Shown piece after piece: positions 47,383 to 51,326 of a stretch of DNA of 64,000 bases. Under the pieces are notes generated by a model. It was not told the DNA's origin and did no database searches. It was given only the letters and a program-made list of their open reading frames with translations. The position numbers and the translations under genes were made by a program. The DNA lies in assembly GCF_001858325.1 (NCBI RefSeq), contig NZ_MBPP01000009.1, positions 1 to 64,000 of the forward strand, in the 5' to 3' direction. Source of the stretch: Marinobacter sp. AC-23. GTDB lineage: Bacteria; Pseudomonadota; Gammaproteobacteria; Pseudomonadales; Oleiphilaceae. The first letter of the stretch is position 1, and the number at the start of each line of letters is the position of its first letter.

Positions 47383-49959
47383 TCAATCCGGAAAATAGCA
47401 GGCCAGATTTTGGCTGACCACGTCACCCGTCAGTTGTAGCGGTGTTGCGCGAAGGTCAAAGCTTTGTACGGCCGCTTCAGGAGAGATGTCCTGTATGGGA
47501 GCGCTTGTGCCGTGTAGCCGTTCTGGCTGGTAAACGCAGTGCCGACCCTTGGGGAACAGTGCCACGTAAGCGATACCTGTTTCTACCAGGTCCTGAAAAA
47601 AATGCGAGCCGTAAGAAAGATCCGGCACCATGTCACCTTCCATTTCCGCCACTTCAACCAGCACGGCAACCCCGGCGATGTCAGCAAAACGAACTGGCAC
47701 GCCCAACTCCGGGCTGCTGGTTCCCCAGCGCCCGGGGCCAATCAGCATGGTTTTTCCGGTATCCATGCGCACCTGCTCGCCCACAAGCCGGGCAACCTCG
47801 TACCGCTGGCTCACCGTTAACCGGCTGTAAACCCCCGCATCCACTCGGATAACACGCTGAATGCCAAGGTTTATATTGCCGCCCATGAAGTGACCGCGTG
47901 TCCGGAACAAAAGTTGTTGTTCGGGTATGTCTGCGGGTATTTCTACCGCCATGGTTTCACCGATGGTCGCCAGCGGCCGGCATTGCACCAGGTTAAAAGC
48001 CGGTTCACCCGCATGGTTCAGGTGCAAGGTAAATTCCACATCCACCGGGTGGCTATAGCCTGCTTCGAGGGTTTTCAGCAAGCTGGAGAGGCGGGCAACG
48101 AAATGGCCACTGTGCACCAGGGGCTTGAACGTTAGCCGCCATACCGGTGTTGGCAGGTTCAGTTCTCTAGCCCGCCGGCTGGCGGGTTGGTCTACTTCAC
48201 CAAGGTGGTTGAGCGGCAGGTCCGCAATCTCTTGTGTGAGTTGGCTTAATGGGCGAGTGGTTAGCTTTCCTTCCCTCAGGTCCAGAACATCCAAAAGGTG
48301 CTGGGAGAACCTGTAGCTTTCATCCTGATTACGGAAGGGCTGCCGGCGCGGGTAGTCCAGGGCCATCACGCAGGCGTGGTCGCCTTCAATTCGATCAACG
48401 GCACGGGTGCCCAGCCCCATGACCAGGCGAACCATGCCGGCGGCGGGGTTCATGTCGGTATCCCAGGCAAAGGTATTGCGGGAAACGCCAACGCCGGCGG
48501 CATCCGGCAAGTAGTAGCGCCCGTGGAAGCGGCCATTGACCCGCTGGATCAGCAGAGCCATGGGTTCTTCTTTCTGGTCCAGACCGCGCTGTTTTCGGTA
48601 AACCAGGGCATCGTTACTCATGGTAGAGGCATAGACCTGGCGAATAGCGTCCTCAAGCTCCGCAAGGCGCTGCTCTGGTGCCCCCTGGTTTACCAGAAAA
48701 ACGCTGTCGTACTTACCAGCGAACGCATTGCCGAACCCATCTTCCTGGAGACTGCTTGAGCGCACCAGAATTGGATATTGACCATAATGATCCAGCAGCC
48801 GCTCCAGCTCGGAACGGATTTCTGGTGGGAACCTACCTGCCAGCAAGTTCCTGCGCAGTTCAGCAGCTTCATTGAAGTAGCCGTCGGCAGAGCGCTGGCG
48901 CATGATCGCCGGCCAAAGACCGTTGTGAACGAGAAAGGCGTAATAGGCATCAGAGCCAAGATAGCTGGAGTCGTGAGGCTCTAGTGCCTCCTGCCATATG
49001 TCGGACTGATTGGTGAGCAGGATACTGCGCGCTATCAGCATGCCGGCGGCTTTACCGCCAATGTAACCGCTACCGATCATTCTGGCGCGAATGGCAAGCA
49101 GATCCTCAAGGCCAAGATAGTTTCTGGCCAAATCCAACATGCGTGGATCCCGACTGATCAGAACGTTCAGTACGCGATCCTGAATATCTGAAATTTGCTC
49201 TTGATCACCACTTTCAAGGGCGTCTGCAACCTGAATAAACAACCGGTCCCAGTAGTCCAGTAGCGGTTGGCGATGCAGCTGAGCCTGTTCCAGGCCAGCC
49301 TGGAGCCGGGTTGCATCACTACTGTCGTCTACCGGGAAAAACCGGCCATTGCGCTCCCGGTGCGGGAGAAACATGGTAGGGGACTGCCGGCGCCAGGCCT
49401 TGATCGGCTGGATCTGAACATCTTCTCCCAGGCGGTGAACATCCACCATCACTTGGGTTGTTTGCCGGATGCGGTCCAGCGTAGTGCGGGAGTGCCTATC
49501 GGGGTAGAGGGCAAACCAGGCGACAGTATCCAGTTCAAACAGGAAGGGGCAAACCACCTGGAAAAAATTGCCGACCATGACATCGGTGGCCCAGGCATTG
49601 AGTAAATCGCTCAAGCAATCACACACGTAGAATGCGCCGCGGCCATGCTCTTCAATCAGGCGCCAAACTCTGCCGGTGAAGGCTTCAAAACCTCCCAGAG
49701 CATCGACGTTTTCGATATGAATGTTGGCTTTCGCGGTTACCAGCGGGGGGTGCTGGCCAAAACGGAGGTAAATAATACGGCGCCCAGCAGACGCCGCAGA
49801 CTCAATAAACGGTGTAACGAATCGGCGGTAATCGTCCAGGTCGCTAACTCTCCAGACGACGTTATCACCGATTCTCAGGCCATCAAGAACATCGTCCAGC
49901 CCCGGGAGGCCGGTGGAAACCCGGTTGTTGTCCTGTGAGTTTCCGCCGTTCCCGGTCAT
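47383..49959 (-). CDS. KaiC-like (degenerate) plus PEP/pyruvate-binding domain protein
   Basis: An 858-residue protein of uncertain function. The N-terminal 200 residues resemble a KaiC/RadA-type ATPase (TGLPGLDDVLDGLRIGDNVVW), but the Walker A sequence is gone: the place of GxxGxGKT reads RVSDLDDYRRF. From about residue 296 comes a PPDK_N/PEP-synthase ATP-grasp domain (GSGYIGGKAAGML and LVRSSSLQEDGFGNAFAGKYDS). There is no swivelling phosphohistidine domain and no PEP-binding barrel, so it cannot be a complete PEP synthase. It starts 17 bp after gdhA with GGAG at good spacing, so the two form an operon. Confidence 0.75.
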   Translation of the reverse strand: MTGNGGNSQDNNRVSTGLPGLDDVLDGLRIGDNVVWRVSDLDDYRRFVTPFIESAASAGRRIIYLRFGQHPPLVTAKANIHIENVDALGGFEAFTGRVWRLIEEHGRGAFYVCDCLSDLLNAWATDVMVGNFFQVVCPFLFELDTVAWFALYPDRHSRTTLDRIRQTTQVMVDVHRLGEDVQIQPIKAWRRQSPTMFLPHRERNGRFFPVDDSSDATRLQAGLEQAQLHRQPLLDYWDRLFIQVADALESGDQEQISDIQDRVLNVLISRDPRMLDLARNYLGLEDLLAIRARMIGSGYIGGKAAGMLIARSILLTNQSDIWQEALEPHDSSYLGSDAYYAFLVHNGLWPAIMRQRSADGYFNEAAELRRNLLAGRFPPEIRSELERLLDHYGQYPILVRSSSLQEDGFGNAFAGKYDSVFLVNQGAPEQRLAELEDAIRQVYASTMSNDALVYRKQRGLDQKEEPMALLIQRVNGRFHGRYYLPDAAGVGVSRNTFAWDTDMNPAAGMVRLVMGLGTRAVDRIEGDHACVMALDYPRRQPFRNQDESYRFSQHLLDVLDLREGKLTTRPLSQLTQEIADLPLNHLGEVDQPASRRARELNLPTPVWRLTFKPLVHSGHFVARLSSLLKTLEAGYSHPVDVEFTLHLNHAGEPAFNLVQCRPLATIGETMAVEIPADIPEQQLLFRTRGHFMGGNINLGIQRVIRVDAGVYSRLTVSQRYEVARLVGEQVRMDTGKTMLIGPGRWGTSSPELGVPVRFADIAGVAVLVEVAEMEGDMVPDLSYGSHFFQDLVETGIAYVALFPKGRHCVYQPERLHGTSAPIQDISPEAAVQSFDLRATPLQLTGDVVSQNLACYFPD

Positions 49960-49976
49960 GAGCTACTGCTCCGCGG

Positions 49977-51326
49977 TCAGATAACGCCCATAGACTGCAT
50001 GGCGCGGGCTACCTTGATGAAGCCGGTAACGTTGGCGCCCAGTACATAGTTGCCTTCGGCGCCGAACTCAGCGGCTGTTTCATAACAGTTCTTGTGGATC
50101 TGGATCATGATGTCCTCAAGGCGCTTTTGAGTGTAGTCGAAAGTCCAGGAATCACGGCTGGCATTTTGCTGCATTTCAAGAGCAGAGGTTGCCACGCCAC
50201 CGGCGTTGGCAGCCTTGCCTGGGCCATACATTACCTTGGCATCCTGGAAGATGGCGATACCTTCTGGAGTTGTGGGCATGTTGGCGCCTTCAGCAACGGA
50301 GATACAGCCGTTCTCAACCAGGGTCTTGGCGTCGTTGGCGTTCAGTTCATTCTGGGTAGCACATGGCAGTGCAATATCACATGGAATGGACCAGATGCTC
50401 CCGCCTTCGACGTATTTTGCATCTTTGTGGAACTCTGTGTAAGCGCTGATACGACGGCGCTCAACTTCCTTGATGCGCTTGATCGCGGCCAGATCGATGC
50501 CCTTTTCGTCCACGATAAATCCGCTGGAGTCGGAGCAGGCAATAACCGTGGCGCCCAGCTCATGGGCCTTGGCAATGGCATAGATGGCTACGTTACCTGA
50601 GCCGGAAACGACAATCTTTTTGCCTTCAATCGAGTCGCCACGAGCTTTCAGCATTTCATTGGTAAAGAACACGGTGCCGTAGCCGGTTGCCTCGGTGCGT
50701 GCACGGCTACCACCCCAGTCGAGGCCTTTGCCGGTAAGCACGCCGGATTCGTAGCGGTTGGTGATGCGCTTGTACTGGCCGAACAGGTAGCCGATTTCGC
50801 GGCCGCCTACGCCAATGTCGCCGGCTGGAACGTCTGTGTATTCACCGATGTGGCGATACAGTTCGGTCATCAGGCTCTGGCAAAAACGCATGATTTCGTC
50901 GTCTGAGCGGCCTTTGGGATCAAAGTCGCTGCCACCTTTACCGCCACCGATGGGCAGGCCGGTCAGGGCGTTCTTGAAAATCTGCTCGAAGCCCAGGAAT
51001 TTGATGATGCCCAGATATACAGACGGGTGGAAACGCATGCCGCCTTTATAGGGCCCCAGGGCGCTGTTGAATTCCACACGGAAGGCACGGTTGATATGGA
51101 TTTCGCCGCTATCGTCCTGCCAGGGCACCCGGAAAATAATCTGGCGCTCGGGCTCACAAATTCGTTGAATGATTTTCTTTTCGGCGAATTCTGGATACTT
51201 CACCAGAACGGGCCCAAGCGTTTCAAGAACTTCGTGCACAGCCTGGTGGAACTCGTTTTCACCCGGGTTGCGGTGCAGAACATCTTCGTAAATCAGTTCC
51301 AGTTTTTCATCAAGTCGGGCTGTCAT
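49977..51326 (-). CDS. gdhA: NADP-type glutamate dehydrogenase
   Basis: A 449-residue hexameric-type enzyme that interconverts 2-oxoglutarate plus ammonia and glutamate. Signatures are [20 protein letters not shown], the catalytic lysine in [36 protein letters not shown] and the dinucleotide fold [16 protein letters not shown]. Length (about 447) matches the small NADP-dependent class. It is the first gene of a pair with the KaiC-like/PPDK_N protein. Confidence 0.95.

What the first reader, a model, noticed from the sequence alone, without database searches (positions are those of the whole stretch)
47383..51326. gdhA paired with a KaiC-like/PPDK_N protein lacking Walker A and catalytic transfer domains
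The 858-residue protein joins a KaiC-type fold without a P-loop to an ATP-grasp domain like the N-terminus of pyruvate phosphate dikinase. The phosphohistidine and PEP-binding domains are missing. It may be a phosphotransferase or regulator using ATP in a new way. Co-transcription with glutamate dehydrogenase (17-bp gap) suggests control of nitrogen/carbon balance or phosphorylation of a partner.
Basis: partly seen in the sequence, partly recalled or inferred. Interest (0 to 1): 0.6.

Follow-up and report, generated by a model that had tools for sequence, protein, structure and literature searches.

The report
Likely dedicated partner of glutamate dehydrogenase
In these marine bacteria an ammonia-assimilating enzyme, glutamate dehydrogenase, is encoded next to a large ATP-binding protein of unknown function, and because distant bacteria keep the same two genes together in different arrangements, the protein is probably a so far undescribed regulator or modifier of that enzyme.

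Summary
Both genes are real: gdhA (449 aa) and, 17 bp downstream, an 858-aa protein ('KP'), in a Marinobacter genome. The last part's predicted fold best matches swivelling domains such as the phosphohistidine domains of PPDK and rifampin phosphotransferase (Z about 6, suggestive only), and it carries an invariant histidine, H786. Profile comparison did not confirm that homology. No PEP-binding domain was found. The link with GDH is the strongest result. KP lies directly behind gdhA in 54 of 54 KP-bearing Marinobacter genomes, is convergent with gdhA in three of four KP-bearing genomes of a second family, and in Bacteroidales a receiver-domain relative (about 25% identical) is divergent from gdhA in 3 of 6 loci. 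One Marinobacter lost both genes, leaving a fused scar; four keep gdhA without KP. Best explanation: a GDH-dedicated ATP-dependent phosphotransfer regulator with an N-terminal input domain. The GDH link is well supported; phosphotransfer is inferred.

The parts
47383..49959 (-). KP: 858-aa KaiC-like / PPDK_N / C-terminal-domain protein
   Evidence: ORF; orthologues in 54 of 120 Marinobacter-genus genomes and 4 of 22 genomes of a second family of the order
49276..49926 (-). KP residues 12-228: KaiC-fold domain lacking Walker A
   Evidence: VIA Z 17.6 to KaiC 7s65_B, rmsd 3.0 over 191 residues; weak DUF7090 match in 5 of 8 members, best E 0.0012
47959..49083 (-). KP residues 293-667 (my boundaries): PPDK_N ATP-grasp with K303, R400, E642, Q659, R661 kept
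   Evidence: Pfam PF01326 at 299-680, E 1.4e-45; phmmer to PEP synthase / rifampin phosphotransferase chains; hhalign to PEP synthases headed by the genome's own PpsA, E 5.4e-23; invariance in 13 of 13
47386..47958 (-). KP residues 668-858: C-terminal domain, predicted swivelling beta/beta/alpha fold, GPGRWG motif
   Evidence: AF2 pLDDT 85.7; VIA Z 6.0 to PPDK 378-510 and 5.7 to RPH-Lm 757-867; no credible Pfam match
47602..47604 (-). codon of H786, candidate phosphohistidine
   Evidence: invariant in 13 of 13 members; first residue of helix 786-794 (119-127 of the domain model)
49969..49972 (-). GGAG, Shine-Dalgarno-like, 9 nt before the KP start
   Evidence: sequence
49977..51326 (-). gdhA, NADP-specific glutamate dehydrogenase
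   Evidence: NF006929 773 bits, PF00208 and PF02812

Best explanation
KP is a dedicated partner of glutamate dehydrogenase that works as an ATP-dependent phosphotransfer regulator. The PPDK-type ATP-grasp domain would use ATP to phosphorylate H786 in the C-terminal swivelling domain. Lacking a PEP/pyruvate domain, it would pass the phosphate to (or withhold it from) GdhA itself or a small partner of the same circuit, tuning ammonia assimilation to energy and carbon state. The N-terminal module is the signal input: a P-loop-less KaiC-like domain in Marinobacter and the second family, receiver-type domains in Bacteroidales. Shown here: the three-part anatomy, intact ATP ligands, invariant H786, and conserved linkage (and one joint loss) with gdhA. 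Inferred: the phosphohistidine, the direction and target of transfer, and the input role of the N-terminus.
For: 54 of 54 KP-bearing Marinobacter-genus genomes (of 120 searched) have gdhA directly upstream on the same strand. In another family of the order the only 4 of 22 genomes with KP are the only 4 with a gdhA at least 79% identical. In two of these the genes are tail-to-tail, 4 nt between stop codons (sequence); in one they are convergent with 11.4 kb between; in one they are on different contigs. In Bacteroidales the REC-PPDK_N relative is divergent from gdhA in 3 of 6 loci, one of them with only the first 34 residues of gdhA before the scaffold ends. So one pair appears in three orientations. 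A Marinobacter genome without both genes keeps a scar joining gdhA's first codons to KP's GPGRWG region. ATP ligands and H786 are invariant in 13 of 13; the C-terminal fold matches phosphohistidine domains among others. The title of a 1996 paper, seen only in the reference list of PMC4539542, says that B. [quoted passage not shown]
Against: Profile comparison of the C-terminal domain with PEP-utilizer domains is no better than shuffled columns (score 15.3; 100 shuffles mean 13.1, maximum 23.6), and Pfam finds no PF00391. Structural Z of about 6 is in the range of chance fold similarity (34 of 999 chains at Z 5 or more, none at 8). Foldseek alone gave no E below 0.001, and the 50 rows it printed were other folds, with no phosphohistidine domain. 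The placing of H786 is my reading, since coordinates could not be superposed. Four of 58 genomes with this gdhA lack KP, so GDH does not need it. Three of 6 Bacteroidales loci show no gdhA beside the gene (in L106 and L107 only the upstream side was visible). No GDH residue clearly separates KP-linked from unlinked enzymes. The 1996 title places its genes downstream of gdhA, whereas the Bacteroidales relative here is upstream and divergent; the paper was not read.
Confidence: 0.4

Rival explanations
1. KP is a non-catalytic allosteric partner of GDH: it binds ATP/ADP and a signal, docks on the GDH hexamer and changes its activity without moving phosphate. The KaiC-like domain serves oligomerisation or docking.
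For: Conserved linkage in three gene orders; P-loop-less KaiC fold under strong purifying selection; no recognised transfer domain by sequence.
Against: Invariant catalytic-type ATP ligands and invariant H786 and R744 suggest chemistry rather than binding only.
Confidence: 0.27
2. KP is a metabolic enzyme like RPH or PigC that uses a phosphohistidine to activate or phosphorylate a small molecule near the GDH reaction; it does not act on the GDH protein.
For: Same ATP-grasp family as rifampin phosphotransferase and prodigiosin ligase (partial matches far below those models' cut-offs); fold similarity of the C-terminal domain to the RPH-Lm His domain.
Against: No separate substrate-binding domain is visible; the N-terminal modules are signalling-type (receiver-type in Bacteroidales, KaiC-like here).
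Confidence: 0.15
3. The two genes are only neighbours: an old gene pair carried along by descent and transfer, with no functional tie.
For: 4 of 58 genomes keep gdhA without KP; G689 has the genes on different contigs; Prevotella L071 has no adjacent gdhA.
Against: Three different relative orientations, retention of the pair while flanks change, joint loss in G093, and co-occurrence in the same 4 of 22 genomes of a second family.
Confidence: 0.13

Closest known systems
REC-PPDK_N 'PEP/pyruvate-binding domain-containing protein' of Bacteroidales (e.g. WP_041525632.1, Parabacteroides distasonis)
   Same: Same core: PPDK_N plus the GPGRWG...G(S/T)HFF C-terminal domain, 25-27% identity over about residues 295-820; neighbour of gdhA in 3 of 6 loci
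   Different: N-terminus is receiver-type (one sub-threshold Response_reg match in each of 3 proteins), not KaiC-like; gene is divergent from gdhA
Pyruvate phosphate dikinase / PEP synthase
   Same: ATP-grasp domain with the same ligands; C-terminal domain fold similar to the PPDK phosphohistidine domain
   Different: No PEP/pyruvate barrel found; no GGxTSH-type motif; C-terminal domain not recognised by PF00391
Rifampin phosphotransferase (RPH-Lm)
   Same: ATP-grasp of the same family, among the best sequence matches in the PDB (deposited there as PEP synthase; one search names 5fbu and 5hv2 rifampin phosphotransferase); swivelling His domain at the C-terminus
   Different: RPH has a separate drug-binding middle domain (recalled) that KP lacks; KP adds a KaiC-like N-terminus
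KaiC and inactivated KaiC-like domains (iKaiC) of archaea
   Same: Fold, Z 17.6; inactivated KaiC domains are described in archaeal signalling (PMC5847659, passages read)
   Different: Here in a bacterium, single domain, no Walker A, fused to a PPDK-type enzyme core

Membership tests
PPDK / PEP synthase enzymes | PPDK_N ATP-grasp domain (PF01326) | tested here: met
   E 1.4e-45, 156.5 bits against cut-off 27
PPDK / PEP synthase enzymes | ATP ligands Lys, Arg, Glu, Gln, Arg (roles recalled from PPDK and RPH structures) | tested here: met
   K303, R400, E642, Q659, R661 invariant in 13 of 13; aligned with PDB chains and PpsA
PPDK / PEP synthase enzymes | Phosphohistidine domain by sequence (PF00391, GGxTSH-type motif) | tested here: not met
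   No PF00391 match in KP or in 7 C-terminal rows at E up to 10; hhalign no better than shuffles
PPDK / PEP synthase enzymes | Phosphohistidine domain by fold with a catalytic His | tested here: inconclusive
   VIA Z 6.0 to 5jvn 378-510, 5.7 to 5fbu 757-867, among other swivelling-type folds; no such row in Foldseek's own 50; His position not superposed
PPDK / PEP synthase enzymes | PEP/pyruvate-binding barrel (PEP-utilizers_C) | tested here: not met
   No Pfam match at E up to 1; only about 190 residues follow PPDK_N
KaiC / RecA-like ATPases | KaiC fold | tested here: met
   VIA Z 17.6, rmsd 3.0, 191 aligned
KaiC / RecA-like ATPases | Walker A P-loop | tested here: not met
   RIGDNVVWRVSDLDDY at the P-loop place in the window protein; no Walker A in the 4 Marinobacter and 4 second-family sequences aligned
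Bacteroidales REC-PPDK_N proteins | Shared PPDK_N plus GPGRWG/HFF C-terminal core | tested here: met
   86 columns invariant in 13 sequences; tblastn E 2e-32
Bacteroidales REC-PPDK_N proteins | Receiver-type N-terminal domain | tested here: not met
   No Response_reg match in KP; sub-threshold matches in 3 of 3 Bacteroidales proteins (27.2-28.2 bits, cut-off 30.2)
Phosphotransfer regulator of GDH | Phosphorylation of KP and effect on GDH | not testable with these tools
   needs biochemistry

The most novel reading that the evidence does not exclude
A new class of post-translational regulation: a dikinase-type phosphotransferase (ATP-grasp plus a cryptic swivelling phosphohistidine domain, no PEP domain) dedicated to glutamate dehydrogenase, with exchangeable input modules (dead KaiC domain or receiver domains), found in two phyla. 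It may be the trans-acting factor that a 1996 paper title reports for Bacteroides GDH.
Probability: 0.25. Interest if true: 0.85.

Novelty: new variant of a known kind. Interest (0 to 1): 0.58.

Why it matters
GDH sits where carbon and nitrogen metabolism meet. A dedicated, repeatedly linked protein with intact ATP ligands but no recognised acceptor domain would add a new kind of control of ammonia assimilation. The 25%-identical Bacteroidales form (gut bacteria) makes it testable in tractable organisms. It would also give a function to the poorly studied REC-PPDK output proteins noted in surveys of receiver domains (PMC4395418 and PMC5847659, passages read), and an example of a P-loop-less KaiC domain used as an input module in a bacterium.

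Tried and rejected
Sequence-level search for a known C-terminal domain: Pfam (at E up to 10 only TOM20_plant 0.02 and PPDK_N 0.23, one member of 7 each), PDB profile search (best E 0.99) and hhalign against PEP synthase and PEP-utilizer domains gave nothing significant. In one search the family-wide alignment did run past PPDK_N into the first strand of the PEP synthase His domain, and the same 17 columns scored E 0.047; neither reached H786. For one search a motif pattern extracted 24 of the 30 PEP-utilizer loci fetched. The PDB profile search with the KaiC-like domain gave only chance matches (best E 1.3); the KaiC assignment rests on the predicted fold.

Full-length structure: mean pLDDT 61, so the PPDK_N part was too poorly modelled to inspect the ATP site.

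Viral contigs were searched twice for relatives; none confirmed. Three relatives in the phage collection are 'UNVERIFIED' faecal scaffolds; L105 at least looks like Bacteroidales chromosome, as it carries the start of gdhA.

Residues distinguishing KP-linked from unlinked GDH: in an alignment of 60 (39 linked, 15 unlinked, 4 exceptions, 2 Bacteroidales) no strictly invariant site passed. With one short unlinked row dropped and the rule relaxed, one conservative V/I site (337) appeared and was set aside. A pattern extracted 34 of the 39 Marinobacter gdhA genes; with the window and 4 from the second family these make the 39.

Considered and rejected: KP as a true PPDK or PEP synthase (no PEP domain found; the genome has a separate PPDK_N gene, an 820-aa frame with the PEP synthase His motif) and KP as a decaying pseudogene (dN/dS 0.040-0.064 in the two large domains).

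Weak hits dropped before counting: 6 of the 60 matching genomes and 6 of the 10 had only short PEP-synthase-like matches; likewise 64 of the 69 matching genomes among 194 of the order.
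Full report
What is there. The window belongs to a Marinobacter genome: all 39 loci found in named genomes are Marinobacter, 64-90% identical. On the minus strand, gdhA (49977-51326, 449 aa) is followed after 17 bp by KP (47383-49959, 858 aa). A GGAG stands 9 nt before the KP start. GdhA is an ordinary NADP-GDH. The genome has one other PPDK_N gene, an 820-aa frame that reads as PEP synthase.

Anatomy of KP. (i) Residues 12-228: the AlphaFold2 model (mean pLDDT of the whole protein 61, about 72 in this part) matches KaiC at Z 17.6, rmsd 3.0 over 191 residues, 15% identity. 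The P-loop is replaced by GDNVVWRVSDLDDY, kept with small changes in the 4 Marinobacter and 4 second-family members aligned. Pfam sees only a weak DUF7090 similarity (5 of 8 members, best E 0.0012). dN/dS is 0.040-0.052 in four comparisons, as low as in PPDK_N (0.041-0.064); in the C-terminal domain it is 0.069-0.102 and in the tail after residue 803 0.147-0.284. So the KaiC-like domain is used and is not decaying. (ii) Residues about 293-667: PPDK_N. K303, R400, E406, D407, E642, Q659 and R661 are invariant in 13 of 13 sequences from Marinobacter (4), the second family (4) and Bacteroidales (5). Alignments to PDB chains of PEP synthase / rifampin phosphotransferase and to PEP synthases headed by the genome's own PpsA put these at the ATP site (residue roles recalled). 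(iii) Residues 668-858: no credible Pfam match, but strongly conserved motifs: GPGRWG, LGxPV, E769, and S-x-G-(S/T)-H786-F-F. Folded alone (pLDDT 85.7), its best VIA matches are DRTGG (2ioj, Z 6.5), PPDK residues 378-510 (5jvn, Z 6.0; also 5jvl, 5jvj, 1kbl, 2r82, 1dik), pyruvate kinase C-terminal domains (Z 5.8), RPH-Lm 757-867 (5fbu, Z 5.7), enzyme I-Ntr (Z 4.8), RraA and many chaperonin apical domains. As I recall SCOP, most of these are swivelling beta/beta/alpha (c.8) folds. H786 opens the helix between strands 766-770 and 797-801, where the phosphohistidine sits in PPDK-type domains (my inference). Z values near 6 alone are not proof: none of 999 chains reached 8, Foldseek's own list had no hit below E 0.001 and its 50 printed rows were other folds, and profile comparison with PEP-utilizer domains equals shuffles.

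Linkage with GDH. The same 120 Marinobacter-genus genomes were searched for both proteins. KP is in 54 (53 in one frame; in G614 it is split by an insertion whose ORFs read as recombinases, my reading). gdhA at least 81% identical is in 58. All 54 KP genes lie directly downstream of that gdhA on the same strand. Four genomes have gdhA without KP (G613, G583, G676, G633); in G613, G583 and G676 a gene that I read as a RegB-like sensor kinase follows gdhA directly (no family search was made of it). Ten genomes have a 65-71% identical GDH and no KP. Gene gaps are -1 to 18 nt, taking the start nearest the aligned region, in the 15 of 39 named loci where the script found both ends. The pair stays while flanks change (L031, L041, L064). 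In G093 a scar joins the first codons of gdhA to KP's GPGRWG region (profile match, sequence, gdhA piece), so both were lost together.

In another family of the order 4 of 22 genomes have KP (G184 itself; G690 73%, G692 72%, G689 49% identical to it) and the same 4 have the close gdhA (79-81%). In G690 and G692 the genes are tail-to-tail with 4 nt between stop codons; in G184 they are also convergent but 11.4 kb apart, with other genes between; in G689 they are on different contigs. In a sample of 194 genomes of the order KP was in 5 (4 Marinobacter and G184). A sample of 398 genomes of the phylum found the C-terminal domain in only 3, all in this genus and one of them the scar.

In Bacteroidales, proteins with the same core (25-27% identity over about residues 295-820) carry receiver-type N-termini. 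In P. distasonis and Phocaeicola gdhA is divergent from the gene and a second gdh gene lies nearby; scaffold L105 also shows the start of gdhA there. Prevotella (L071) and scaffolds L106 and L107 show no adjacent gdhA, with one side unseen in the scaffolds. So the partner genes occur co-directional, convergent and divergent, which argues for a functional tie rather than an inherited operon. The samples are small outside Marinobacter, other phyla could not be searched broadly, and relatedness means that the Fisher values printed are not to be read as probabilities.

Mechanism. I commit to a GDH-dedicated ATP-dependent phosphotransfer regulator: ATP to H786, then to GdhA or a partner, gated by an exchangeable N-terminal input domain. 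Anatomy, ATP ligands and linkage are shown; phosphotransfer, target and sign are inferred. A purely allosteric, non-catalytic role is the main rival.

Literature. [quoted passage not shown] PMC4395418 (passages) lists pyruvate phosphate dikinases among effectors associated with aspartate-less receivers. PMC4539542 (passages) reports lower GDH production in B. fragilis grown with bifidobacterial polysaccharides and cites Baggio and Morrison 1996, of which only the title was seen. Ten searches (listings, of which searches showed 20 of 44 and 10 of 38 papers) showed no paper that describes this protein or its link to GDH; subscription journals are mostly not held.

Check against the calls. Mended: the pLDDT of the KaiC-like part, the identity range, the Foldseek rows that speak against the fold, and which readings of neighbouring genes are mine alone.

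Noticed in passing
L075 about 1500-1606 (genome G093): Scar in which the start of gdhA is fused to a short remnant of KP's GPGRWG region: both genes deleted together.
   Followed up: yes
L098 3280-9394 (genome G614): KP gene split in two pieces about 3.5 kb apart by an insertion whose ORFs I read as recombinases, while gdhA stays intact.
   Followed up: partly
L031 10662-12457, L041 10619-12419: In L031, L041, L057 and L098 two genes that I read as a RegB/RegA-like two-component pair (only the first seen in L098) follow KP; in the window MBL follows instead, and in G613, G583 and G676, which lack KP, the pair follows gdhA directly.
   Followed up: partly
L128/L097 (G184:C8 119090-130460): About 11 kb with a gene that I read as a reverse transcriptase and unknown genes between convergent gdhA and KP.
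   Followed up: no
L105, L106, L107 (MT835811, MT835667, MT839982): 'Bacteriophage sp.' scaffolds that carry the REC-PPDK_N gene; L105 also the start of gdhA, so it looks like a Bacteroidales chromosomal piece rather than phage.
   Followed up: partly
NC_022111.1 (L071): A 1.77-Mb Prevotella record filed as plasmid.
   Followed up: no
L070 P0001 residues 298-358: Weak DUF5752 match (E 0.024) between the receiver region and PPDK_N.
   Followed up: no
G654:C14:8740-9708: A gdhA-like stretch with six in-frame stops (56% identical to the window GdhA), besides an intact copy on contig C25.
   Followed up: no
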